Of a stretch of DNA of 10,618 bases, positions 1-10,592 are shown piece by piece. The stretch spans positions 1 through 10,618 of the forward strand of contig JAFZQQ010000285.1 in the NCBI GenBank assembly GCA_017620315.1, given 5' to 3'. A program made the translations under genes and the position numbers. Position 1 is the first letter of the stretch, and each line of letters starts with the position of its first letter. The DNA is from Oscillospiraceae bacterium (GTDB lineage: Bacteria; Bacillota; Clostridia; Oscillospirales; Oscillospiraceae). Under the pieces are notes generated by a model. It made no database searches. It was not told the origin of the DNA and worked only from the letters and a program-made list of their open reading frames with translations.

Positions 1-137
1 ACCTTCCCTTTCAGGGAAGGCAAAAAGGAAACTCATTCGTCTGCGCTTCGCGCAGCCACCTTCCCTTTCAGGGAAGGCAAAAAGGAAACTCATCCGTCTG
101 CGCTTCGCGCAGCCACCTTCCCTTTCAGGGAAGGCAA
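1..137. repeat. 57-bp tandem repeat array, 2.4 copies
   Basis: Two full 57-bp units (1-57 and 58-114) are followed by a partial third (115-137) that matches the first 23 bases and then diverges into the leader of the next gene. The full copies differ at one base only (T37 versus C94). Each full unit contains two perfect inverted repeats with the same TTC loop: an 8-bp stem (CCTTCCCT/AGGGAAGG) and a 6-bp GC-rich stem (CTGCGC/GCGCAG). The array is cut by the window edge and may extend upstream. It looks like a REP/BIME-type intergenic palindromic element of the kind common in Firmicutes genomes; that class assignment is inference. The near-identity of copies implies recent duplication or gene conversion. 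Confidence 0.9.
116..134 (+). other. Hairpin just upstream of the operon's first gene
   Basis: The third repeat copy keeps only the first palindrome: an 8-bp perfect stem (116-123 with 127-134) and a 3-base TTC loop. It ends 11 bases before the AAGGAG ribosome binding site at 146-151. No T-run follows, so it is not a standard intrinsic terminator. In a read-through transcript it would form a stable structure close to the ribosome site. Equivalent stems lie at 2-20 and 59-77, and the second palindrome type lies at 41-55 and 98-112. A regulatory role is inference. Confidence 0.6.
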
Positions 138-162: not shown

Positions 163-2175
163 ATGAACGCAATCGAACTGGCGCGCCGGATGGCGCAGCT
201 CGGCGAAACGCAGGACGCGCTGCGCGCCTATGCCGTCGCGCTGAGCGGCAATCTTACCGCTCGCGAGCAGCTTGAGGCGGCAGTCTTCATCATGAAGAAC
301 GGCGGAGACTACAAGATCGCCTATTCCACCTTTGTCGGCCTCTACAACGCGGGGCAGTACAAAAGCGACATCATGCCCATGATGCGCACGGCGTTTCTCG
401 AACCGAATCTCAAGCTTCTTAAAAGCCGCTACGAGCGCAACTGCAAGGCGCTTTCCAAATACCTCTTTATTTCTCGTAAGGATTTTATACCCTTCGATGA
501 GTTGCCGCTCATCTTTTTCCCATATGACGACCACAGCGGCTATGTGCCCTATGATTCTCGGACGGACAGCTTCCGCGGCTTTGTGAATGTGAAAGAGACC
601 GTCATTCACCATTACTTTTTCAAGGATCTTGAAAAGCCAATCCTGGCGAGCGACGTTTACAGCCAGTATGAACTGGAATATTTGAACGACAACGTTCGAA
701 AGAGCGAGTGGATCGGACGTGAGAACCATATCTATCTGCATTATACCGACTGGGCGGAGTTCTGCTCCTATCTCACGGTGCTGACACTCAAGCAGCTTTT
801 GGAAGATCAGAAGTTTATCTTCCTGTTCGGGGACGAGCTTTCGGACTACCCCTATGACTTCAAGGAGCGTTACGGAGTCGATTACAGCCAATATCCCGTC
901 AAGCCGATTGGAATCCGCGAGGTCAATAAGCTGATCTGGCACACACAGCTTTCCAGCGACAACGGCGGCGACTTCTTCAACGAGGTTTTTGACTACCATC
1001 CAAACCTTCTTTGCTTTACATCAGTTATCTTTGACACGATAATGAAAGTCTCGGGAGACCTAATCAATCAGCTGCGGGAGCGCAAGGCAAAAAATGAATT
1101 GGGTTCGGCAACTATTGATTTCGATACCATCGGGACGGTTCACTTCGGCAATGAGCTTTGTACCCTGACAAATCCGACCTATAAGGATGTGCTGGTGGCA
1201 TGCTATCTCTCATTGAATGAGCAAAACGACGGACTGGATTTGAACAGTCGTATCGCGCCCGCGCTCTTCTTCCAGCCGCATTTCTATAATTTGGAGTATT
1301 CTGTCGATATTGACGAGAATGGGAATTCTGTTTTGACCTCCGACAAACTGGACGAAATAATGGAATCCCCAATCTTTCGCGATTTTAAGTATATAAAGAC
1401 CTTTACGCCGATGCGACGCTTCACGACTGCTTATGCCGCTACGCTGCGATATATGGTTGGGACAAACCGCGCACTGGAGCAGCGTGGAGCGAGAACCGGA
1501 AAATGGGAGACCATCAGCGATGTTGCCACAAGCTACGCTGTAAACCGCAGCTTTATGCGCGATCCGGACAGCCGCCTTTACCGCGACGCGGTAATTGTGC
1601 GGTTTGAAGACGGAAAGCTGAACCCAAAAGCGACCTTTACCAAGCTTGCTGAGTTTCTGGATATCCCATATACAGAAAGCATGACCTACTGCTCACAAAT
1701 GGGCAAGCACGACGTTGAGACCGCAGCGGGCAACGCAATCGGCTTTGATCCGGTCACGGTATACCGTACCTATGACGAGTTTGTGGATGACGCGGATCGT
1801 TGTTACATTGAATTTTTCCTGCGCGACGCGTATGAGTTTTACGGTTATGATTTCCACTACTATGACGGCAAGCCTGTGGATGTGGAGCGCATAAAAGAGT
1901 GGCTGGTCGAGTTCAAGAAGCTGGATCACTACGTCGAGGTTACCTGGCGAAATGCCTTGCGCGAAACGGAAAATGAGGATGGGACGCAGACAAGCGAGGA
2001 AGAGGCGGAAAATCTTTTAACGGTTGTTATGTACAACCTTATGATGAATCGTCTGCGCCTCTCCGAAAAACTCTTGAAGGGATTGAACTTCCTCAACAAG
2101 CGCAACCAGCCGCTTTCGATGATACCACTGCTGCAGCCCGACCCAGAGCTGCTTGACCAGCCGATCTATCACTGA
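163..2175 (+). CDS. Large sulfotransferase-like protein with helical N-terminus (putative transferase)
   Basis: This 670-residue protein starts at ATG 163, 11 bases after an AAGGAG site. Residues 1-60 look helical and TPR-like, with repeated Ala/Leu spacing. The best functional clue is residues 475-500: a hydrophobic strand ending in VRFED (479-483), then NP (487-488) and a KLAEFLDIPY helix. This matches the late core of sulfotransferases (VRYEDL...P...L..FLGIP). KTFTPMRR (412-419) could correspond to the 3'-phosphate-binding R-P/S segment. I see no clear N-terminal PAPS P-loop (SGTT/S type), so the domain is divergent or permuted, and residues 60-400 are unassigned. No signal peptide or membrane segment is visible, so it should be cytoplasmic. 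It is 14 bases upstream of a CysC-like kinase, the enzyme type that makes 3'-phosphonucleotide donors. I infer a group transferase acting on a glycan or on flagellin. A glycosyltransferase cannot be excluded. Confidence 0.5.
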   Translation: MNAIELARRMAQLGETQDALRAYAVALSGNLTAREQLEAAVFIMKNGGDYKIAYSTFVGLYNAGQYKSDIMPMMRTAFLEPNLKLLKSRYERNCKALSKYLFISRKDFIPFDELPLIFFPYDDHSGYVPYDSRTDSFRGFVNVKETVIHHYFFKDLEKPILASDVYSQYELEYLNDNVRKSEWIGRENHIYLHYTDWAEFCSYLTVLTLKQLLEDQKFIFLFGDELSDYPYDFKERYGVDYSQYPVKPIGIREVNKLIWHTQLSSDNGGDFFNEVFDYHPNLLCFTSVIFDTIMKVSGDLINQLRERKAKNELGSATIDFDTIGTVHFGNELCTLTNPTYKDVLVACYLSLNEQNDGLDLNSRIAPALFFQPHFYNLEYSVDIDENGNSVLTSDKLDEIMESPIFRDFKYIKTFTPMRRFTTAYAATLRYMVGTNRALEQRGARTGKWETISDVATSYAVNRSFMRDPDSRLYRDAVIVRFEDGKLNPKATFTKLAEFLDIPYTESMTYCSQMGKHDVETAAGNAIGFDPVTVYRTYDEFVDDADRCYIEFFLRDAYEFYGYDFHYYDGKPVDVERIKEWLVEFKKLDHYVEVTWRNALRETENEDGTQTSEEEAENLLTVVMYNLMMNRLRLSEKLLKGLNFLNKRNQPLSMIPLLQPDPELLDQPIYH

Positions 2176-2189: not shown

Positions 2190-2696
2190 ATGAAAACAGG
2201 AACCGTTTACTTTTTCACAGGGCTTTCCGGCGCGGGAAAGACCACGCTCGGCGGCGAGTTTTACCGCAGAATGAAGGCGCGCAAAAACGACGTTGTGCTG
2301 CTCGACGGCGACCAGATCCGCGTTGTGTACGGCTCGGACTTCGGATATTCCACCGCCGAGCGCAAAAAGGCCGCGGGTTACGATATCCGCCTGTGCAAGG
2401 TGCTGTCCGATCAGGGCATCGATGTGGTCTACTGTGCCATCTCGATGTATGACGAGGTGCGCGACTGGAACCGCGCGAATATCCCCAACTATAAGGAGAT
2501 CTACGTCAAGGTCAAAATGGAGACGCTTTACAAGCGCGACCAGAAGGGGCTTTATTCCGGCAAGGTGCCGGAGGTCGTTGGCGTCGACCTGCCGTGGGAC
2601 GAGCCGAAGACGCCGGATTTTGTCATCGAGAACGACGGACAGGAGACGCCCAAGTATATCGTCGACCGGGTGGAAAAGCAGCTTGGCCTGTGCTGA
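2190..2696 (+). CDS. CysC/APS-kinase-family nucleotide 3'-kinase (substrate possibly a CMP-phosphonate)
   Basis: This 168-residue protein has the adenylylsulfate kinase fold in order: P-loop GLSGAGKTT (11-19), DGDQIR (39-44, matching DGDNVR), FGYS (51-54), R58, ISMYDEVRD (84-92, matching ISPYRADRD), RDQKGLY (116-122) and VDLPWDEPKTPDFVI (132-146). APS kinases phosphorylate the ribose 3'-OH of APS to give PAPS. Odd points: it lacks the roughly 30-residue N-terminal extension, and an ungapped alignment replaces the family ENIRR segment after R58 with KAAGY (60-64), so the Asn that contacts APS is Ala61. No ATP sulfurylase gene is present, while two cytidylyltransferase-type domains and PEP mutase are. 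Campylobacter jejuni Cj1415 is a CysC homologue that phosphorylates CDP-phosphoramidate. By analogy this enzyme may act on a CMP-phosphonate. Family assignment is firm; substrate is inference. Confidence 0.85.
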   Translation: MKTGTVYFFTGLSGAGKTTLGGEFYRRMKARKNDVVLLDGDQIRVVYGSDFGYSTAERKKAAGYDIRLCKVLSDQGIDVVYCAISMYDEVRDWNRANIPNYKEIYVKVKMETLYKRDQKGLYSGKVPEVVGVDLPWDEPKTPDFVIENDGQETPKYIVDRVEKQLGLC

Positions 2697-2706
2697 GGAC
2701 CGGAAT

Positions 2707-4002
2707 ATGAAAACGGTTTATACCTGCTTTTGCACCGATGTGATCCACGAGGGGCATTTGAATATCATAAACGAGGCGAAGAAGCTCGGCTCGGTGACGG
2801 TCGGCGTGCTTGCCGACGCCGCGAGCATTCGCTATAACCGCTTTCCGCTGGTCAGCCTTGAGGATCGTGTCAAGATGGCGGAGGCGATACCCGGCGTCGA
2901 CCATGTTGTCATACAAAACGAGATCATGTATGACGAGGTCTTTGCACAGCTTCACCCGGACTATATCGTTCACGGCGACAACTGGGAGCTGCCCTCCATG
3001 CAGGCGATACGCCGCAATATTATCAAGCTGACCGAGCAATACGGCGGAGAGCTGGTGGAGATCCCGTATACGCAGAACGACGCGGTTCAGAAGAACGACC
3101 GGCAAATGATCGAGAAGCTTGCCATGCCGGAATTCCGCCGCGGACGCCTGCGCAAGCTGCTGAAAATGGTGCCGATCGTCAAGACCATCGAGGTACACAG
3201 CGGACTGACCGGGCTGCTGGCGGAGAAGACGGTCGTGGTCGACGGTGAGGTGATCGACCAGTTTGACTGCATGTGGATATCCTCCCTTTGCGACAGTACC
3301 GAGAAGGGAAAGCCCGATATCGAGCTTGTGGATATGACCAGCCGCTTCCGCACGATAGAAGACGTTATGGAGGTCACGACAAAGCCCATCATCTTTGACG
3401 GCGATACCGGCGGGCTGACAGAGCACTTTGTCTATACTGTACGTTCTTTGGAACGCATGGGGGTCAGCGCGGTGATCATCGAGGACAAGACGGGGCTGAA
3501 AAAGAACAGCCTGTTCGGGACGGAGGTCGTTCAGACGCAGGCGAGCATTGAGGACTTTTCCGCAAAAATAGCGGCAGGGAAAAAAGCGCAGCTCTCTGAC
3601 GATTTTATGATCATTGCCCGAATTGAGAGCTTGATACTTGAGCACGGAATGGAGGACGCCCTTAACCGTGCGCGTGCGTTTGTCGCCGCGGGGGCCGACG
3701 GGGTCATGATCCACAGCAGAAGAAAGGAGCCCGACGAGGTTTTGGAATTCTGCGACAAGTTCCGGTCGGAAAACAAACATACGCCCATTGTTGTTGTGCC
3801 CAGTTCTTACAATTCCGTTTCGGAGGAAGAGCTTGCCGCACACGGGGCTAATATTTGCATTTACGCCAACCAACTGCTTCGGGCTGCTTTCCCGGCAATG
3901 GAGAACGCGGCGAAGAGCATTTTGAAGCATCACAGAGCAAAAGAGATAGACAGCGAGCTTATGCCGATCAAGGATATCATTACACTGATCGACGAGCTGT
4001 GA
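2707..4002 (+). CDS. pepM: Phosphoenolpyruvate mutase with N-terminal cytidylyltransferase-like domain
   Basis: This 431-residue fusion catalyses PEP to phosphonopyruvate, the C-P bond-forming first step of phosphonate biosynthesis. Residues 1-130 are a CTP-transferase-like domain with HEGH (14-17, the HxGH nucleotide site) and HGDNW (89-93). Its C-terminal ISSTxIR signature is not visible: residues 121-131 read YTQNDAVQKND. Residues 145-430 are the mutase: EVHSGLTG (162-169), WISSLCDST (190-198), DGDTGG (231-236, metal-binding Asp pair), the diagnostic EDK(X)5NS (259-268), ARIES (304-308), H336 and VVVPSSY (362-368). All residues expected for mutase activity can be found, and EDK(X)5NS separates it from isocitrate-lyase relatives. 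I chose ATG 2707 because it follows GAGGA at the upstream stop by a normal spacing and gives the family N-terminus; the frame is open further upstream but overlaps the kinase. Ten bases separate it from the kinase gene. Confidence 0.95.
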   Translation: MKTVYTCFCTDVIHEGHLNIINEAKKLGSVTVGVLADAASIRYNRFPLVSLEDRVKMAEAIPGVDHVVIQNEIMYDEVFAQLHPDYIVHGDNWELPSMQAIRRNIIKLTEQYGGELVEIPYTQNDAVQKNDRQMIEKLAMPEFRRGRLRKLLKMVPIVKTIEVHSGLTGLLAEKTVVVDGEVIDQFDCMWISSLCDSTEKGKPDIELVDMTSRFRTIEDVMEVTTKPIIFDGDTGGLTEHFVYTVRSLERMGVSAVIIEDKTGLKKNSLFGTEVVQTQASIEDFSAKIAAGKKAQLSDDFMIIARIESLILEHGMEDALNRARAFVAAGADGVMIHSRRKEPDEVLEFCDKFRSENKHTPIVVVPSSYNSVSEEELAAHGANICIYANQLLRAAFPAMENAAKSILKHHRAKEIDSELMPIKDIITLIDEL

Positions 4003-4017
4003 CAAAAGAGGAACAGT

Positions 4018-4743
4018 ATGTACGCCATCCTTTCGGATATCCATGGCAACCTTTTTGCGCTGGAAGCGGTTGCCCGGGATATGGAACGCTTTGCGGTCGA
4101 AGGCATAATTTTGCTGGGCGATCTGATCGATTACGGTATGCAGTCGAATGAGGCCGTGGAGTTTATCGAATCAAAATGGGAAGATAAGCTCGTTTGCAAT
4201 CTTTGGGGCAATCACGAGCGGGCGATCCTTACCCCGGACTTTACGCGCTTTTCAAGTCAGCGAGGCGTTGAGAGCGCAAAGCATACCGCGACTGTGCTCA
4301 CTGAGAAAACGCGGCGATATCTGTGCGATTGCCTTGTCCGCGAGGGGCACACGGAGCTTGTGCTTGCGGGAAGACGTGTTCTTGCGGTGCATGGCTCGCA
4401 GGAGGACGTTTATTGGAAGGCGATAGCTCCGGGAAATCTTCGGGGGGATTACTGCGGTTATGATCTTGTCCTTTCCGGGCATTCGCACTATTCGCATTTT
4501 TTCCAGACGTTTTACGAGACGGAGGATCCGGACAGACGAAACCGCCATGCAACGTTTTTCATCAATCCCGGCTCGGTCGGGCAGCCGCGGAACCATAATC
4601 CGGCGGCGCAGTATGCGCTTCTTGATCCGGCAACAATGAGCGTGGATCTGCGTGCGGTCGAGTATGACGTTTCCACTGCGATGTTGCTTTTCGACGGGAG
4701 TGTGGATGATTTTTACCGGGCGCGGCTCAAATACGGCGTGTAA
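4018..4743 (+). CDS. Calcineurin-like metallophosphoesterase (YfcE/MJ0936 type)
   Basis: This 241-residue protein carries the complete metallophosphoesterase motif series: SDIHGN (6-11), GDLIDYG (34-40), GNHE (64-67), HGS (125-127) and GHSHY (154-158), followed by NPGSVGQPR (183-191), typical of the small YfcE/MJ0936-like branch. Such enzymes bind two metals (usually Mn, Fe or Ni) and cleave phosphomono- or diesters in the cytoplasm. It follows pepM by 15 bases with an AGAGGA site and is presumably co-translated. The substrate cannot be read from sequence. In this context, candidates are a 3'-phosphonucleotide released by the sulfotransferase-like enzyme, a phosphorylated phosphonate intermediate or a sugar phosphate. 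These are inferences; the fold is not in doubt. Confidence 0.9.
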   Translation: MYAILSDIHGNLFALEAVARDMERFAVEGIILLGDLIDYGMQSNEAVEFIESKWEDKLVCNLWGNHERAILTPDFTRFSSQRGVESAKHTATVLTEKTRRYLCDCLVREGHTELVLAGRRVLAVHGSQEDVYWKAIAPGNLRGDYCGYDLVLSGHSHYSHFFQTFYETEDPDRRNRHATFFINPGSVGQPRNHNPAAQYALLDPATMSVDLRAVEYDVSTAMLLFDGSVDDFYRARLKYGV

Positions 4744-4761
4744 CAGGGAGGGGAGCAGACG

Positions 4762-5772
4762 GTGAACAGACTGTATGTGATCAGCGGTGTAGCGGGGATG
4801 ACAGGCAATGAGCTGGTCAGACAGATACTGACAGACGATTCGCGGGATCATGTGGTCGGTTTTGATAATTTTTTTGCATCTTCGATCGAAACGGTCAAAG
4901 ACCGAATCGACGATGAACGATTTGATTTTTTTGAGTACGACTTGAACCGTCGGGATCAAATGGAGCAAATTGAACGCATAGTTCTCTCCAAAAGGGGGGG
5001 GGTTGATGAGACGGTTTATATTAATTGCGCCGCGGTGGTCCACACAGAGCATTTTTACCATGTCTATGAGACCTTTGAAACAAATGTCGAGGGAATGAAC
5101 GGGTTCCTTCAGCAGGCAGTCCGTGTCGGGGCTGAGAAGTTTATCAACTGCTCGACCTCCGAGGTCTATTCCATGAACTCCTGGAACGAAAACGGCGGCG
5201 TCCGGGAGGACGATTATATCACAATGGCGGATGCCGAACACAGCCAACGGACAAGCTATGCGACAGGAAAGCTGCTCACCGAGTTTTTTATAAAGGACGC
5301 AGTGGACGCGGGAAAGATCAAGGGCTGTTCCATCCGTTTCGCGAATGTATACAGCCGAAACGAGCGGTTTGCGAAACACATCATCCCATATATCATCAAC
5401 AGCCTGAAAAAGGACGGAAAGGTCGTGCTGCTGGAAAACAGCAAGAAAAATCGGCGCACTTTCCTGAATAACTATGACAGCTGCAGTGCGGTTCTTGCGC
5501 TGGTCAACACGGACAGCGCTCTGGATGGAACGATCTACAACGTGGCGACGGATGAGGAGATATCCATTATCGAGCTTGCCAAACTCTGCGCACGCAAGAT
5601 GGGTATCGATTCCCCGGTTATTGAGTTTTCCGGATACCGGGAGTCCGATCCCGAACGCCGCTTGCTGTCCACGGAAAAGATACGCTCGCGCACTGGCTGG
5701 CGCGCGAACGTGAGCCTTGACAAGGGGCTTGGCGAATGTATCAGGAACTATCTTCGGGAAGGTGAAGCATGA
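4762..5772 (+). CDS. NAD-dependent epimerase/dehydratase (extended SDR)
   Basis: This 336-residue protein starts at GTG 4762 after a GGGAGGGGAG site. It has the extended-SDR signature: Rossmann GVAGMTG (9-15) with D35 after strand 2 (NAD preference), CAAVVH (89-94), STSEVY (131-136) with the catalytic Ser/Thr, and YATGK (166-170) with the catalytic Tyr/Lys. It also has RFANVYS (192-198) and DPERRLLSTEKI (307-318), the sugar-nucleotide-binding tail seen in UDP-hexose epimerases and dehydratases. It most likely modifies an NDP-sugar in the cytoplasm, perhaps the sugar to which a phosphonate is attached. The 5' third is AT-rich, with T7 runs at 4869-4875 and 4926-4932, and a run of nine G lies at 4994-5002. 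The stop overlaps the next start by 4 nt. Exact substrate unknown. Confidence 0.88.
   Translation: MNRLYVISGVAGMTGNELVRQILTDDSRDHVVGFDNFFASSIETVKDRIDDERFDFFEYDLNRRDQMEQIERIVLSKRGGVDETVYINCAAVVHTEHFYHVYETFETNVEGMNGFLQQAVRVGAEKFINCSTSEVYSMNSWNENGGVREDDYITMADAEHSQRTSYATGKLLTEFFIKDAVDAGKIKGCSIRFANVYSRNERFAKHIIPYIINSLKKDGKVVLLENSKKNRRTFLNNYDSCSAVLALVNTDSALDGTIYNVATDEEISIIELAKLCARKMGIDSPVIEFSGYRESDPERRLLSTEKIRSRTGWRANVSLDKGLGECIRNYLREGEA
4994..5002 (+). repeat. Poly-G tract (G9) inside the epimerase gene
   Basis: Nine consecutive G follow four A and are read in frame as AGG-GGG-GGG-GTT (Arg-Gly-Gly-Val, residues 78-81). One extra G brings a TGA into frame immediately after the tract. Loss of one G leads to a TGA at 5096-5098. 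Either slip would truncate the protein before its catalytic Tyr/Lys. Tracts like this are classic slipped-strand contingency sites in surface-glycan genes of Campylobacter and Neisseria; use as a switch here is inference. Confidence 0.7.
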
Positions 5773-6530
5773 AAACTGCCATCATCACTGTCGCGGGAAT
5801 ATCAAGCCGGTTCAACCGGGGGATCGCGGAAGAGAATAAAGTGCTGAAGGCAATCTACAGTGAGGGCGGAAGAAAGGATACACTGCTTTATCATCTGCTG
5901 AAGAACTGTGCCTATGCGGACAGCATTGTTCTGGTGGGAGGATACAGGTTTTCTGCGCTTACGGAGTATGTAGAAACACTTCGCGCCGAGTTCCCGCAGG
6001 TCGTAACGGTGTTTAATGAGCATTATGCGGAGCTTGGCTCCGGCTACAGCCTTTATCTCGGCGTAAAAGAGGCGCTGCGTCTGAATGCGGATGAGGCGCT
6101 GTTTGCGGAGGGCGATCTGGATGTTGACCGGGAGTCGTTCGCTGAGGCTGCTGCATCATCGAGAGCCGTGCTTACCTATACGAATGAACCGATTTATGCG
6201 AATAAGGCGGTCGTCCTCTATGAGAATGGGGAGGGACGGTATAAATATGCCTTCAACAGCGCGCATGGTCTGTTGACGATAGATGAACCGTTTTCCTGTA
6301 TCCTGAATTCCGGACAGATTTGGAAGTTTACGGATATGGAGGCGCTGGACGAAGCGAGCGAGCTGTTCTTCCACGAAGAAAGAGAAGATACCAACCTGGC
6401 TATAATCCGGCGATACGTTGACAACCTTTCCCAGGATGACGTGAAGCTGGTCCGGCTGAAGCAATGGACAAACTGCAATACAAGAGATGACTACCGGCTT
6501 ATAATGAACAGATGGAGGAGTGAACAGTGA
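5769..6530 (+). CDS. Nucleotidyltransferase, LicC/PntC-like (candidate CTP:phosphonate cytidylyltransferase)
   Basis: This 253-residue protein starts at ATG 5769, inside an ATGA overlap with the epimerase stop. It belongs to the NTP_transferase superfamily: AGISSRF (9-15) is the nucleotide-binding loop (usual form AGxGxR), K24/K27 follow, and EGDLDVD (114-120) supplies the metal-binding Asp. NEHYAELGSGYSLYLG (83-98) resembles the substrate loop of choline-phosphate and 2-aminoethylphosphonate cytidylyltransferases, and NCNTRDDY (235-242) matches the family tail motif NxxTxxDy. Known PntC enzymes convert CTP plus 2-aminoethylphosphonate to CMP-AEP, the activated form for attachment to glycans or lipids. 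With PEP mutase and phosphonopyruvate decarboxylase in the same operon, a phosphonate substrate is more likely than phosphocholine. A sugar-1-phosphate substrate remains possible. No membrane segment is visible. Confidence 0.75.
   Translation: MKTAIITVAGISSRFNRGIAEENKVLKAIYSEGGRKDTLLYHLLKNCAYADSIVLVGGYRFSALTEYVETLRAEFPQVVTVFNEHYAELGSGYSLYLGVKEALRLNADEALFAEGDLDVDRESFAEAAASSRAVLTYTNEPIYANKAVVLYENGEGRYKYAFNSAHGLLTIDEPFSCILNSGQIWKFTDMEALDEASELFFHEEREDTNLAIIRRYVDNLSQDDVKLVRLKQWTNCNTRDDYRLIMNRWRSEQ
6514..6520 (+). promoter_or_regulatory. Ribosome binding site GGAGGAG supporting a GTG start
   Basis: GGAGGAG lies 6 bases before GTG 6527, whose last three bases of the GTGA overlap form the upstream stop (6528-6530). 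No better-placed ATG is present, so the dehydrogenase start is GTG with translational coupling. Confidence 0.75.
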
Positions 6531-7711
6531 AATCGCTGCAAGAGAGACTGACCTGCGTCGAAAAACATGTCAAGGCGCATAATATCACTGTGATGATCAT
6601 CGGACTGGGCAGCGTGGGTACGTATCTGCTGGATTATATCGTCAGCAGAAACGACGAGGATATCAGAATTGTTGTCGTGGGGCGAAACCACGAAAAGATG
6701 GAAAAGAACGTAAATATCGTTCGCGTTGCCGCACTGATCCGTGGGCTTAACAGAACCCATATTGAGATCGAGGCGGATGTCGATTTGAACGATATCTCTG
6801 CGATACAAGCCGCTGTTGATAAGTATAGGCCGGATTTTATTGTGAATTCGAGCCGTGCATATCCGGGATTGAAATATGGCAGCATCAGCTGGTCGAACGT
6901 CAGGGCATATGGAATCTGGACGCCGCTTGCGATACGCTTTACAAAGAATGTGATGGAGGCGTGCGAACGTGCGGATACGGACGCGTTGGTCATTAACACA
7001 TCATATTCCGATGCGGTGATTCCATGGCTCAAGAGCGCTGGCAAGCCGTATCCGGACTTCGGAAGCGGAAATATGAACCATCTTGTGCCGAGAATTCGGT
7101 TTGCTGTTGCGGAGATGCTTAACGTAAAGGATTTTTGGAATGTAGATGTGGTGTTTGCCGCCGGGCATTTCCATGACGTTTGTATCAGCAAGGAGGGGCA
7201 GACCGAGGGAGTATATTTGCCGCTTGCCGTATACTACCGAGGCGAGGAACAGAAACTCGAACAAAGCGAGATATTCCGCAGATGCAAGATCGCTATGCCG
7301 GTCGATGCTCAGCGCAATATGATGAATGCGTCCAGCAACTATCAGATAATCGACGCTGTAATCAATGCGATACGAACAGGCAAGGAGCAACGTGTGTTTT
7401 CGCCCGGCGTCTTCGGAGAAATCGGCGGATATCCCGTACGGATAGGCTATAAGGACAGCGCACTCGACGCTTGGATCGACGAATCCGTGTTCAGCTTCGA
7501 GACGATGAACAAGGCGGACAGGGCGTCTATGGCTCTGGACGGTATCGAGGATGTAACCGACGGTACGCTGATATATACGGACGCGTTGATTGCAAAAGCG
7601 AAGAAAGCATTTGGCGTTGAACTGCCAAAACGTGTGGCGTTCAACGAGATCGATGAAACGGCGGGCTTTATTATCGACAAGATCATAACACCGCAGTTGT
7701 CAAAGCAGTGA
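6527..7711 (+). CDS. Uncharacterised NAD(P)-binding dehydrogenase with LDH/MDH-like motif order
   Basis: This 394-residue protein is not one I can name. After a short N-terminal helix it has a Rossmann motif VMIIGLGSVGTYLL (22-35). The second strand ends VVVGRN (49-54) with Arg rather than Asp, which favours NADP. Further along, the order of motifs recalls lactate/malate dehydrogenases: INTSYSD (156-162, position of the NPVD segment), GSGNMNHLVPRIRFAVAE (179-196, position of the G-x-LDsaRfr helix) and AAGHFHD (211-217, position of the GEHGDS catalytic His). Saccharopine-dehydrogenase-type annotation would also be plausible. It overlaps the upstream nucleotidyltransferase by 4 nt and ends 7 bases before phosphonopyruvate decarboxylase. 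A redox step on a phosphonate intermediate, for example phosphonoacetaldehyde or phosphonopyruvate, is a reasonable inference but unproven. Confidence 0.65.
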   Translation: MKSLQERLTCVEKHVKAHNITVMIIGLGSVGTYLLDYIVSRNDEDIRIVVVGRNHEKMEKNVNIVRVAALIRGLNRTHIEIEADVDLNDISAIQAAVDKYRPDFIVNSSRAYPGLKYGSISWSNVRAYGIWTPLAIRFTKNVMEACERADTDALVINTSYSDAVIPWLKSAGKPYPDFGSGNMNHLVPRIRFAVAEMLNVKDFWNVDVVFAAGHFHDVCISKEGQTEGVYLPLAVYYRGEEQKLEQSEIFRRCKIAMPVDAQRNMMNASSNYQIIDAVINAIRTGKEQRVFSPGVFGEIGGYPVRIGYKDSALDAWIDESVFSFETMNKADRASMALDGIEDVTDGTLIYTDALIAKAKKAFGVELPKRVAFNEIDETAGFIIDKIITPQLSKQ

Positions 7712-7718
7712 GGGCGCA

Positions 7719-8843
7719 ATGGACGTAAAACGCTTTATTGCCCTTCTGGACGCCGGGTTTTACACCGGCGTGCCGGACAGCCTGCTCAAGCCGCTGTGCG
7801 ACTGCCTGCTGGACGAGTTAGGCGAGGACCCGCGCAGGCATGTTATCGCCGCGAACGAGGGCAACGCCGTCGCGCTTGCCGCGGGATACCATCTCGCAAC
7901 GGGTAAAACCGCGGCGGTGTATCTGCAAAATTCCGGCGAGGGCAACATCGTAAACCCCCTTGCGTCGCTGTGCAGCGACAAGGTTTACGGCATACCGCTC
8001 ATTCTGGTCGTCGGTTGGCGCGGCGAGCCGGGAGTGCACGACGAGCCCCAGCACATATATCAGGGCGAGGTGACGCTTCGTCTGCTGGAGGACATGGACG
8101 TAAAGACCTTTGTGCTTTCTCCGGATACCTCGGAGGCGGAGGCCGGGGCGGCGCTTGAGGAATTCCGCCCCCTGCTCGCGCAGGGAAAGCAGGTCGCCTT
8201 TGTCGTGCGAAAGGGCGCGCTCAGCTATGACCGGAAGGTGAACTACGAAAACGGGAACACAATGCGCAGGGAGGAGATCATCCGGCAGGTGCTCGCCGTA
8301 AGCGGGGACGATCCGGTCGTATCCACGACGGGGAAGGCAAGCCGCGAGCTCTTTGAGCTGCGCGAGGCGTCGGGCGAGGGCCACGGACGCGACTTTCTGA
8401 CCGTCGGCTCGATGGGGCACAGCTCGTCCATCGCACTTGGCATAGCTTTGCAAAGACCGGATAAACGGGTATGGATCGTCGACGGCGACGGCGCGGCGCT
8501 GATGCACATGGGCGCTATGGCGGTCATCGGAGCGATAAAGCCGAAAAATATAGTGCACATCATCATCAACAACGGCGCGCACGAGTCGGTCGGCGGGCAG
8601 CCTACGGCCGCGGCGCAGCTGGATCTCGTTCAAATAGCCAGAGGCTGCGGCTATCCGTGCGCCGAGTCGGTCTCTGACCCCGAAGGTCTTTCCGCCGCGC
8701 TGGCGGCAGCGAGGGACGGCGACAGACTGACGCTTATAGAGGCAAAATGCGCCATCGGTGCGAGGAGCGACCTCGGCCGCCCAACGACGACGGCGAAGGA
8801 AAATAAAGAAAGCTTTATGGAACACCTGAGAGCGGGCCGGTGA
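7719..8843 (+). CDS. ppd: Phosphonopyruvate decarboxylase (TPP-dependent)
   Basis: This 374-residue enzyme decarboxylates phosphonopyruvate to phosphonoacetaldehyde, the irreversible step that pulls the unfavourable PEP mutase equilibrium forward. Family motifs appear from end to end: TGVPDSLLKP (16-25), NEGNA with the TPP-activating Glu47 (46-50), YLQNSGEGN (68-76), WRGEPGVHDEPQH (100-112), STTGKASRE (202-210), GSMGHSSSIALG (230-241), the TPP/Mg motif GDG (256-258) closing at NN (284-285), HESVGGQPT (288-296) and GARSDLGRPT (347-356). Length matches Ppd/AepP rather than the 550-600 residues of general TPP decarboxylases, and WRGEPG plus SVGGQPT argue against sulfopyruvate decarboxylase. ATG 7719 follows TGAGGG, which overlaps the upstream stop. 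It is separated from pepM by four genes but lies in the same transcriptional direction and run. GC content is higher than in the preceding genes. Confidence 0.95.
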   Translation: MDVKRFIALLDAGFYTGVPDSLLKPLCDCLLDELGEDPRRHVIAANEGNAVALAAGYHLATGKTAAVYLQNSGEGNIVNPLASLCSDKVYGIPLILVVGWRGEPGVHDEPQHIYQGEVTLRLLEDMDVKTFVLSPDTSEAEAGAALEEFRPLLAQGKQVAFVVRKGALSYDRKVNYENGNTMRREEIIRQVLAVSGDDPVVSTTGKASRELFELREASGEGHGRDFLTVGSMGHSSSIALGIALQRPDKRVWIVDGDGAALMHMGAMAVIGAIKPKNIVHIIINNGAHESVGGQPTAAAQLDLVQIARGCGYPCAESVSDPEGLSAALAAARDGDRLTLIEAKCAIGARSDLGRPTTTAKENKESFMEHLRAGR

Positions 8844-8876
8844 CCGCGCGATCACGACACACAGGAGGGCTTAGCC
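8844..8876 (+). other. Short leader between decarboxylase and flagellin with strong RBS
   Basis: The 33-base gap holds a strong AGGAGGG ribosome site (8863-8869), 7 bases before ATG 8877. I see no terminator stem-loop and no good -35/-10 or sigma-28 (TAAA-N15-GCCGATAA) match here or in the last 60 bases of ppd. Read-through from the phosphonate operon into flagellin is therefore possible. Confidence 0.55.
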
Positions 8877-10592
8877 ATGCGTATCAAAAACAACATAGAC
8901 TCAATGAGGTCCTACAGAAACTACAGCACAAACAACAAGGGGCTATCAAAGGATCTTGAAAAGCTCTCCACGGGCTACAAGATCAACCGCTCCGCGGACG
9001 ACGCCGCGGGGCTGGCGATATCCGAGAAGATGCGGGCGCAGATCACGGGTATCGAGGGGGCGGTCAAGAACGCGAAGGACGGCATAAGCCTTGTCCAGAC
9101 CGCCGAGGGCGCGCTGACGGAGGTCCACGGCATCCTTGACCGTATGACAAGCCTTGCCGAGCAGTCTGCCAACGGGACTTACGACAACGAGGTCGACCGT
9201 GCGCAGCTGCAAAAGGAGGTCGAGTCTCTCAAAAGCGAGGTCGACCGCATTGCCGATTCGTCCAACTATAACGGCATCAAGCTGCTCGACGGCTCGCTCA
9301 ACGGCGGCGCGGTTTCGCTCGGCGGCGTCAGCCTTGAGGGGCGCAACGTCTCACATACGCAGGCGGGGAGCCTGAAGACAGGTGTTCTTCTGACCGATTT
9401 CAGTGCCATAGACCCCGTGAATGCATCGATCGACTATATCAGGCTGGACGGCAAAACGGTCGAGATCAATTATGCCGACAACAAAGATGCACGCGAGCTT
9501 GCAGGCTTTCTCAAGAACAATCTGAACACCGTGACGCCTGACGAGGTGCTTGAAACGGTCGCTGAGAAATTCGAGAAGATCATTAACGAGTCGGCGACCG
9601 CACAGGGCGTCAACGCCTCGGTGAAGGTGCGCGTTGAGGCGGTGAACGGAAAACTGGTTTTCGAGAGCGCGAACAAGACTCCCGCCTCGGAGTTTTCGTA
9701 CATCGGAAACAATGCGACCGACGAAAACGACGCGAAAAACGGAGTGATGCACTCGCTGCTGGAGGGCAGCACGGGTCAGGCGAACCACGCGGTGCTCGGC
9801 CCCTCGCAGAACACCTATGACGGAAATAAAGTCGATACGGCGGACAAGTTCCATATGACGATAAACGGCGTGTCCGTGGGCGTTTCCGTGCCCTCGGCCA
9901 TAAATGACGGCGAAGCGATGAGCAGCGCCGCCGCCAAGCTTACCACCGCGGTACAAAACGCCGTAGGCGATTACAACAGCGCAAGAGGACTCAGCGAGGG
10001 CGTATATGACGAAAAATCCGGGCTTACCGGACTTACGAAAAATGAATTTACGGTAAAAGAAGGGGATAACGGAAACTTCCAGGTCTTGTATTCCGGGAAG
10101 GAACCGGTAGAATTCAGCTTTTCCGATGTCGGCGAGAGAACGGTCGCCCAGGGCCTCGGCCTTGCGACCGGAGGCAGCTCCGGCGGAGCCGGCGCGCTGT
10201 CGCTCCAGATCGGCGACACAGCGGAGGATTACAATAGCGTGTGGGTCTCGGTCGAGGATATGCACACGACTGCGCTGGGCATCAAGAGCGTGGACGTCAG
10301 CACGCAGAACGGCGCATCCGAAGCGATGAAGTCGATCAAGGAAGCAATCAACAAGGTCTCCGACGCACGCGGCGGTCTCGGCGCGCTGCAGAACAAGCTT
10401 GAGCATACGATCGGCAACCTCGGGGTCATGCGAGAGAACATCCAGAACGCCGAATCGCTGATCCGTGACACTGACGTTGCCGAGCAGATGATGAGCTATA
10501 CAAAGAACAACATCCTCAATCAGAGCGCGCAGGCGATGCTTGCGCAGGCAAACCAGCTGCCGCAGGGCGTGATGCAGCTGCTTCAGGGATAA
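8877..10592 (+). CDS. fliC: Flagellin (flagellar filament protein)
   Basis: This 571-residue flagellin is exported by the flagellar type III system and polymerises into the filament. The N-terminal D0/D1 region (1-140) has KDLEKLSTGYKINRSADDAAG (26-45), QTAEGALTEVHGILDRM (74-90) and NYNGIKLLDG (130-139). The C-terminal D1/D0 region (about 439-571) has LSLQIG, ALGIKSVDVS and NAESLIRDTDVAEQM (524-538), and ends in LPQGVMQLLQG. The middle (about 141-438) is variable and surface-exposed; two segments (182-215 and 322-362) read like flagellin inner domains, and a GGSSGGAGA linker (432-440) joins it to the D1 helix. The central part is rich in Ser, Thr and Asn and has no Cys. It follows ppd by 33 bases with AGGAGGG at 8863-8869. 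No convincing sigma-28 promoter lies in the gap. As the last gene of a surface-modification operon it is the natural candidate substrate. Confidence 0.97.
   Translation: MRIKNNIDSMRSYRNYSTNNKGLSKDLEKLSTGYKINRSADDAAGLAISEKMRAQITGIEGAVKNAKDGISLVQTAEGALTEVHGILDRMTSLAEQSANGTYDNEVDRAQLQKEVESLKSEVDRIADSSNYNGIKLLDGSLNGGAVSLGGVSLEGRNVSHTQAGSLKTGVLLTDFSAIDPVNASIDYIRLDGKTVEINYADNKDARELAGFLKNNLNTVTPDEVLETVAEKFEKIINESATAQGVNASVKVRVEAVNGKLVFESANKTPASEFSYIGNNATDENDAKNGVMHSLLEGSTGQANHAVLGPSQNTYDGNKVDTADKFHMTINGVSVGVSVPSAINDGEAMSSAAAKLTTAVQNAVGDYNSARGLSEGVYDEKSGLTGLTKNEFTVKEGDNGNFQVLYSGKEPVEFSFSDVGERTVAQGLGLATGGSSGGAGALSLQIGDTAEDYNSVWVSVEDMHTTALGIKSVDVSTQNGASEAMKSIKEAINKVSDARGGLGALQNKLEHTIGNLGVMRENIQNAESLIRDTDVAEQMMSYTKNNILNQSAQAMLAQANQLPQGVMQLLQG

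What the first reader, a model, noticed from the sequence alone, without database searches (positions are those of the whole stretch)
2190..10592. Phosphonate biosynthesis operon directly joined to a flagellin gene: possible phosphonate-modified flagellum
PEP mutase (EDK(X)5NS) and phosphonopyruvate decarboxylase (WRGEPG, SVGGQPT) are both unmistakable, and a PntC-like nucleotidyltransferase sits with them. All are co-directional, with flagellin only 33 bases after ppd and no visible terminator between. Flagellins are known to carry nonulosonic acids and other glycans; phosphonates are known on capsules, exopolysaccharides and lipids. A dedicated phosphonate tailoring operon ending in its own flagellin would be an unusual filament decoration.
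Basis: partly seen in the sequence, partly recalled or inferred. Interest (0 to 1): 0.82.

Follow-up and report, generated by a model that had tools for sequence, protein, structure and literature searches.

The report
Flagellin operon with phosphonate-making genes
A gut-type bacterium carries genes for making a rare carbon-phosphorus compound in one unit with a flagellin gene and a transferase-kinase pair that in relatives usually sits beside flagellin, which suggests that its flagella carry that compound; no chemistry has been measured.

Summary
The genes are as described: PepM with a fused cytidylyltransferase domain, Ppd, and flagellin 33 bp after ppd. The run really begins one gene earlier with ST670 (163-2175), an uncharacterised TPR/sulfotransferase-fold protein whose best solved matches are protein-tyrosine sulfotransferases, then an APS-kinase-like gene (APSK). 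In relatives flagellin lies within 400 bp upstream of ST670 in 29 of 34 cases, and APSK within 400 bp downstream in 30 of 33. Behind APSK sits an exchangeable donor module: phosphonate in 9 of 34 APSK loci, else polyol-phosphate, phosphoramidate or sulfate types. ATP sulfurylase was not found in 26 of 27 APSK genomes. So APSK probably 3'-phosphorylates a CMP-linked head group, as Campylobacter Cj1415 does, and ST670 transfers it to flagellin. Against: the window's PepM cassette usually lives away from flagellin (1 of 80 closest loci). No AEP aminotransferase was found, so the phosphonate may be hydroxyethylphosphonate. 2-AEP on flagellin is known in C. difficile, where no pepM is reported. New: a dedicated, repeatedly assembled flagellin-phosphonate operon and a testable transfer mechanism.

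The parts
1..137 (.). 57-bp tandem repeat, 2.4 copies, at the cut end of the contig, just before ST670
163..2175 (+). ST670: N-terminal TPR-like helices and a sulfotransferase-fold domain (about 248-567); proposed transferase acting on flagellin
2190..2696 (+). APSK: APS-kinase-like 3'-kinase of the PRK05541 type
   Evidence: PF01583 97 bits; PRK05541 167.4, cut-off 127; TIGR00455 108.9, cut-off 138.7
2707..4002 (+). PepM with N-terminal cytidylyltransferase domain
   Evidence: TIGR02320 400.5 bits; N-terminus matches chain 5x3d_A E 3.6e-27, deposited as phosphoenolpyruvate phosphomutase
4018..4743 (+). metallophosphoesterase
   Evidence: PF12850 66 bits
4762..5772 (+). SDR (dTDP-glucose-4,6-dehydratase-like)
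   Evidence: PF01370 93 bits
5769..6530 (+). DUF6564 putative nucleotidyltransferase
   Evidence: PF20202 299 bits; NTP_transf_3 24.7, cut-off 27
6527..7711 (+). NAD(P)-binding protein with lactate/malate dehydrogenase fold; candidate reductase of a phosphono-oxo compound
7719..8843 (+). phosphonopyruvate decarboxylase Ppd
   Evidence: TIGR03297 471.8 bits
8877..10592 (+). flagellin, 571 aa
   Evidence: PF00669 138 bits, PF00700 86 bits; sister to the ST670-linked flagellin of same-genus genome G300

Best explanation
This is a flagellin-modification operon, probably of an Oscillospiraceae member, whose donor module makes a phosphonate. PepM and Ppd turn PEP into phosphonoacetaldehyde. The dehydrogenase-fold protein (6527-7711) probably reduces it, perhaps to 2-hydroxyethylphosphonate. 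A cytidylyltransferase (the PepM N-terminal domain and/or DUF6564) makes CMP-phosphonate. The APS-kinase-like enzyme adds a 3'-phosphate, giving a PAPS-like donor. The sulfotransferase-fold protein ST670 then moves the phosphonyl group onto flagellin or a sugar on it, leaving 3'-phospho-CMP. Shown: genes, order, predicted folds, linkage in relatives, ATP sulfurylase not found. Inferred: substrates, donor, acceptor and product. The window flagellin is probably the second one of the operon, with another cut off upstream of ST670.
For: Flagellin within 400 bp upstream of ST670 in 29 of 34 and APSK within 400 bp downstream in 30 of 33 (one of these loci, L203, came from a flagellin search). A nucleotidyltransferase (ATP sulfurylase counted) follows APSK in 27 of 34 APSK loci, window included (annotation). 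ATP sulfurylase PF01747 in 1 of 27 APSK genomes, and there inside a flagellin-ST670-APSK operon; CysN over cut-off in 0 of 27. That one APSK scores best with TIGR00455 (135.0, just under its cut-off) and is 36% identical to the window's. The APSK tree follows the donor module: 9 changes against a mean of 20.5 and a minimum of 17 in 200 shuffles. Two loci carry a phosphoramidate-like gene set, the pathway in which Cj1415-1418 make CDP-phosphoramidate 3'-phosphate (PMC11800397 passages). A PHP protein occurs in 16 of 34 loci; the three tested score best with RNase RNM and 3',5'-nucleoside bisphosphate phosphatase models, under their cut-offs. The ST670 model matches protein-tyrosine sulfotransferases. 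The quick PepM tree suggests several separate joinings.
Against: The closest PepM loci with the same cassette lack flagellin, ST670 and APSK, so the cassette itself is not flagellin-specific. No AepZ over cut-off in G000, G106, G222, G613. The donor loop reads NGGDF in 33 of 35 ST670s, the ATP-sulfurylase-linked one included, so it does not tell donors apart. ST670 also exists without APSK (L180, L194). Seven of 34 APSK loci show no nucleotidyltransferase after APSK. In G613 PepM lies upstream of flagellin and its APSK groups with the PHP-only kind. No PHP gene was found in the window. PAPS_reduct-family (CysH/CysD-type) proteins ring in 11 of 26 genomes and were not sorted further. The ST670 and flagellin trees also follow the module beyond all 200 shuffles, so shared descent of whole operons could explain much of the APSK signal. 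Several genomes are incomplete, G000 among them. Foldseek TM-scores for ST670 are modest (0.25 by query, 0.53 by target).
Confidence: 0.53

Rival explanations
1. The phosphonate decorates flagellin, but by a separate glycan route: ST670-APSK does one constant job, and a glycosyl- or LicD-type transferase elsewhere moves CMP-phosphonate to the flagellar glycan, as in a C. difficile-like type A glycan.
For: 2-AEP sits on GlcNAc of FliC in C. difficile (PMC8861647 passages); an ST670-free flagellin-LicD-LicD-AepZ-NTPT-Ppd-PepM run exists in L110.
Against: No glycosyltransferase or LicD Pfam hit in the window; APSK tracks the module and the two phosphoramidate-type ST670s differ at the donor loop.
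Confidence: 0.2
2. True PAPS sulfation of flagellin by ST670 and APSK; the phosphonate genes serve something else.
For: L186 has flagellin-ST670-APSK-ATP sulfurylase-flagellin; the ST670 fold is that of PAPS enzymes; PAPS_reduct-family proteins occur in 11 of 26 genomes.
Against: ATP sulfurylase not found in 26 of 27 APSK genomes, CysN over cut-off in none of 27; the L186 APSK stands apart from the other 31 in the tree, with scores of the other kind in the three checked.
Confidence: 0.1
3. The PepM cassette makes a phosphonate for another surface polymer and landed beside flagellin by chance.
For: Same cassette without flagellin in relatives; 79 of 80 closest loci show no flagellin in the stretch held; ST670 and most cassette genes have lower GC than flagellin.
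Against: PepM recurs with APSK in 8 other genomes, by several separate joinings in the quick tree.
Confidence: 0.13
4. Assembly chimera at ppd-flagellin.
For: Flagellin ends are conserved; the best database match to the window's flagellin is 63%, although PepM and ST670 were found at 100% with a longest contig of 12,408 bp.
Against: Flagellin and ST670 share the sister genome G300 of the same genus; Ppd upstream of flagellin also in L238, and flagellin at both ends in L186.
Confidence: 0.04

Closest known systems
2-AEP-modified type A glycan of C. difficile FliC (PMC8861647, passages)
   Same: phosphonate on flagellin of a Clostridia member, shown by MS
   Different: pepM survey negative there and source unknown; here a dedicated pathway is beside flagellin, but nothing is measured
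Phosphonyl tailoring (PepM/Ppm, PntC; PMC6697681, passages)
   Same: PepM fused to a PF01467 cytidylyltransferase, Ppd, CMP activation
   Different: carbohydrate or lipid acceptors presumed there; a word search of the text finds no flagell or sulfotransferase; here APSK and a sulfotransferase-fold protein are added
Campylobacter MeOPN pathway, Cj1415-1418 (PMC11800397, passages)
   Same: ends in a CDP-linked donor with a 3'-phosphate; a similar gene set by Pfam/NCBIfam names is present in L197
   Different: capsule, not flagellin; different head group in the window; sequences not compared
Tyrosylprotein sulfotransferase (TPST)
   Same: fold; protein substrate
   Different: TPR-like N-terminus, altered loop (my reading), no ATP sulfurylase found in most genomes
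Clostridial flagellar glycosylation islands (C. botulinum FGI, PMC2674064, passages)
   Same: variable gene sets beside flagellin
   Different: nonulosonic and capsule-type genes there; here a recurring ST670-APSK core with exchangeable donors

Membership tests
PepM-dependent phosphonate biosynthesis | EDK(X)5NS motif and equivalog score | tested here: met
PepM-dependent phosphonate biosynthesis | phosphonopyruvate decarboxylase partner | tested here: met
   TIGR03297
PepM-dependent phosphonate biosynthesis | C-P compound produced | not testable with these tools
   needs 31P NMR or MS
AEP tailoring (PntC/AepZ type) | AepZ/PhnW aminotransferase | tested here: not met
   none in the window; best in G000 40.9 bits, cut-off 360.8; MAG is incomplete
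Flagellin | both terminal domains | tested here: met
PAPS sulfotransferase | sulfotransferase fold | tested here: met
   predicted model
PAPS sulfotransferase | Pfam sulfotransferase score over cut-off | tested here: not met
   no hit for the window; two of five homologs scanned give 12.4 of 22 and 14.7 of 27
PAPS sulfotransferase | 5'-phosphosulfate loop | tested here: inconclusive
   reads NGGDF in 33 of 35; equivalence to the TPST loop is my reading, motif recalled
APS kinase (true) | TIGR00455 equivalog cut-off | tested here: not met
   108.9 of 138.7
APS kinase (true) | source of APS in the genome | tested here: inconclusive
   no PF01747 or CysN in G000, but G000 is 68.6% complete; not found either in 25 other APSK genomes
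Cj1415-type nucleotide 3'-kinase | activity on a CDP/CMP-linked group | not testable with these tools
   Cj1415 sequence was not held; only gene context in L197 and L232 considered
C. difficile type A / AEP flagellin | phosphate-linked GlcNAc on N-methyl-Thr and its gene set | not tested
   genes not compared

The most novel reading that the evidence does not exclude
ST670-APSK is a general flagellin head-group writer: one sulfotransferase-fold transferase family and one 3'-kinase family take whatever CMP- or AMP-linked group the neighbouring module makes (phosphonate, phosphoramidate, polyol phosphate, sulfate) and put it on flagellin from a PAPS-like 3'-phosphonucleotide donor.
Probability: 0.4. 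Interest if true: 0.92.

Novelty: new variant of a known kind. Interest (0 to 1): 0.8.

Why it matters
The later steps of phosphonyl tailoring are called enigmatic (PMC6697681, passages), and the origin of 2-AEP on C. difficile flagellin is left open (PMC8861647, passages). This operon type names a candidate acceptor, donor form and transferase for such a step, and predicts that sulfotransferase folds can move groups other than sulfate. It also suggests that gut bacteria vary flagellar chemistry by swapping donor modules.

Tried and rejected
PepM-flagellin linkage as the main signal: rejected, since only 1 of the 80 best-matching GTDB loci (of 410 relatives found; 330 not seen) has flagellin in the stretch held.

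P-loop residues as a marker of donor type: no help, as NGGDF is the same in phosphonate and sulfate operons.

Sigma-28 promoter before the window flagellin: the best match is no better than shuffles (130 of 200 reach it), and the motif seen in congeners was not found in the window at up to 2 mismatches. Single matches in congeners are also not significant by themselves.

Carboxyspermidine-dehydrogenase-like reading of 6527-7711: only E 0.025; the model has an LDH/MDH fold instead. A GH4 glycosidase is also in the list (rank 35), so a dehydrogenase role is not certain.

CysD by PF01507: 11 of 26 genomes ring, three APSK genomes with 69-111 bits (G284, G360, G106); this family does not separate CysD from CysH and kin, so I used CysN.

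ST670 outside the order: the class-level sample gave 1 of 391, the window's own genome.

Prior reports were searched. Among what was listed, the C. difficile paper is the only one in which I saw a phosphonate on flagellin. Most listed papers were not opened, and one search listed 10 of 363. In PMC2674064 and PMC4519771 the phrase methyl phosphoramidate occurs only in the reference lists; PMC6429109 gave a reference-list passage.
Full report
What is there. The window is a whole 10,618-bp contig of a 68.6%-complete MAG. Among named flagellin relatives the nearest is Oscillibacter (58%); a same-genus flagellin contig (G290, 145,416 bp) has the length of one named Ruminococcaceae/Oscillospiraceae. 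So I infer Oscillospiraceae. Nine genes run one way: ST670 (163-2175), APSK (2190-2696), PepM with a fused cytidylyltransferase-like domain (2707-4002), metallophosphoesterase, SDR, DUF6564, an oxidoreductase, Ppd (7719-8843), flagellin (8877-10592). No terminator-like site is listed in the gap, and no congener-type flagellar promoter motif is found in the window.

First test, PepM. TIGR02320 is over cut-off in 12 of 300 family genomes, G000 included. In 5 of these 12 (G000, G050, G284, G106, G222) PepM lies with APSK and mostly ST670; flagellin is seen on the contig in 2 (G000, G050), and the other three contigs end first; the remaining 7 show none of these genes in the stretches held. Among the 80 best GTDB loci of 410 found, flagellin occurs in 1, ST670 and APSK in 0. 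The closest relative, L044 (88% identical PepM), has the same MPE-SDR-DUF6564-oxidoreductase-Ppd cassette without flagellin. So the cassette looks like a general one that was brought to this operon.

Second test, ST670. It matched in 22 of 400 family genomes, 12 of 394 order genomes (G000 in both) and 1 of 391 class genomes, its own; several matches are fragments, and some of these (in G203, G329, G360:C48, G697) were not fetched. In 29 of 34 copies with at least 100 bp upstream, a flagellin end lies within 400 bp upstream on the same strand; in 30 of 33 with at least 300 bp downstream, an APSK-bearing frame starts within 400 bp (the window is not in these counts; L203 came from the flagellin search). 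In L203 a methyltransferase gene lies between ST670 and APSK. Exceptions: L194 (two copies), L195, L197 (flagellin 5.3 kb upstream) and L236 for flagellin; L180 and the two L194 copies for APSK. The window contig starts only 162 bp before ST670, where that flagellin would be; L186 shows flagellin at both ends of such an operon.

Donor modules. I assigned 34 loci with APSK (window included; L195 and L196 have partial or broken frames; L038 was found only through PepM) by local phmmer, with Pfam/NCBIfam for selected genes. Phosphonate in 9: window, L035, L038, L040, L012, L181, L182, L227, and L238, where it lies upstream of flagellin. IspD/ribitol-type cytidylyltransferase in 10. CTP_transf-oxidoreductase in 3. 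SDR-DUF2284-NTPT in 3. A methyl-phosphoramidate-like set in 2: L197, with a GATase best matching gamma-glutamyl-CDP-amidate hydrolase, below its cut-off; and L232, where no GATase was seen. ATP sulfurylase in 1 (L186). In 6 more no nucleotidyltransferase was found; APSK is fused to a methyltransferase in all 4 of these that were scanned, and PHP follows. L238 likewise has none after APSK, which leaves 27 of 34 with one (ATP sulfurylase counted). PHP occurs in 16 of 34; of three scanned, the best NCBIfam models are 3',5'-nucleoside bisphosphate phosphatase (L182) and RNase RNM (L040, L187), below cut-off. In five phosphonate genomes AepZ is in the operon and over cut-off, so these should make AEP.

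What APSK does. True sulfation needs ATP sulfurylase. Of 35 genomes searched (26), 27 carry an APSK locus. PF01747 is in 1 of these 27, G362, inside its second flagellin operon; CysN over cut-off is in none of the 27 (G203, which has one, is known here only for an ST670 fragment). PF01507, which covers CysD and CysH kin, rings in 11 of 26 and was not resolved. The nine order genomes are 91-100% complete. The G362 sulfate-operon APSK scores best with TIGR00455 (135.0, cut-off 138.7) and is under the PRK05541 cut-off, while window, L197 and L235 are over the PRK05541 cut-off. The APSK tree follows the module: 9 changes for 9 labels against a mean of 20.5 in 200 shuffles; ST670 11 against 17.1; flagellin 10 against 13.6; no shuffle reached any of the three. 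So the signal is strongest in APSK but not confined to it, and shuffles do not allow for relatedness. Within one genome APSK goes with the module, not the genome: G362 (L182/L186), G677 (L226/L227), G690 (L229, L230/L232). In Campylobacter, Cj1415-1418 make CDP-phosphoramidate 3'-phosphate, called the likely donor (PMC11800397 passages). That Cj1415 is annotated as an APS kinase is recalled.

Is the contig sound? Flagellin and ST670 both fall as sister to genome G300 of the same genus (SH-aLRT 99 and 88). Flagellin GC matches another G000 contig (0.575 and 0.569), while ST670 and most cassette genes are lower, 0.50-0.54 (APSK 0.572 and Ppd 0.623 are not). Against: PepM and ST670 were found at 100% with a longest contig of 12,408 bp, but the flagellin had no match above 63%; I cannot explain this.

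Verdict. Phosphonate on flagellin is likely but unproven. I call it a new variant of flagellin modification with a new candidate transfer chemistry.

Noticed in passing
L186 (G362:C34): Flagellin-ST670-APSK-ATP sulfurylase ... flagellin: a candidate protein-sulfation operon for flagella.
   Followed up: partly
L197 (G405:C6), L232 (G690:C11): Methyl-phosphoramidate-like gene sets with flagellin; their ST670s are the two of 35 that differ at the donor loop.
   Followed up: partly
L110 1622-11296: Flagellin-LicD-LicD-AepZ-NTPT-Ppd-PepM run in which no ST670 was found: a second, separate flagellin-phosphonate arrangement.
   Followed up: partly
L187, L191, L226, L235: APS-kinase-like domain fused to a methyltransferase, followed by a PHP phosphoesterase, with no nucleotidyltransferase found; substrate unknown.
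   Followed up: no
L040 8395-9822: Radical SAM-cytidylyltransferase fusion between PepM and Ppd; a homolog follows PepM in L012.
   Followed up: no
L073, L087, L092, L112: Records titled Methanobrevibacter or Desulfovibrio carry the clostridial-type PepM; perhaps misbinned contigs.
   Followed up: no
window 1-137: 57-bp tandem repeat at the contig end; may be why the assembly broke there.
   Followed up: no
window 8877-10592: Window PepM and ST670 are in the protein database with a 12,408-bp contig; no match above 63% was found for the window flagellin.
   Followed up: partly
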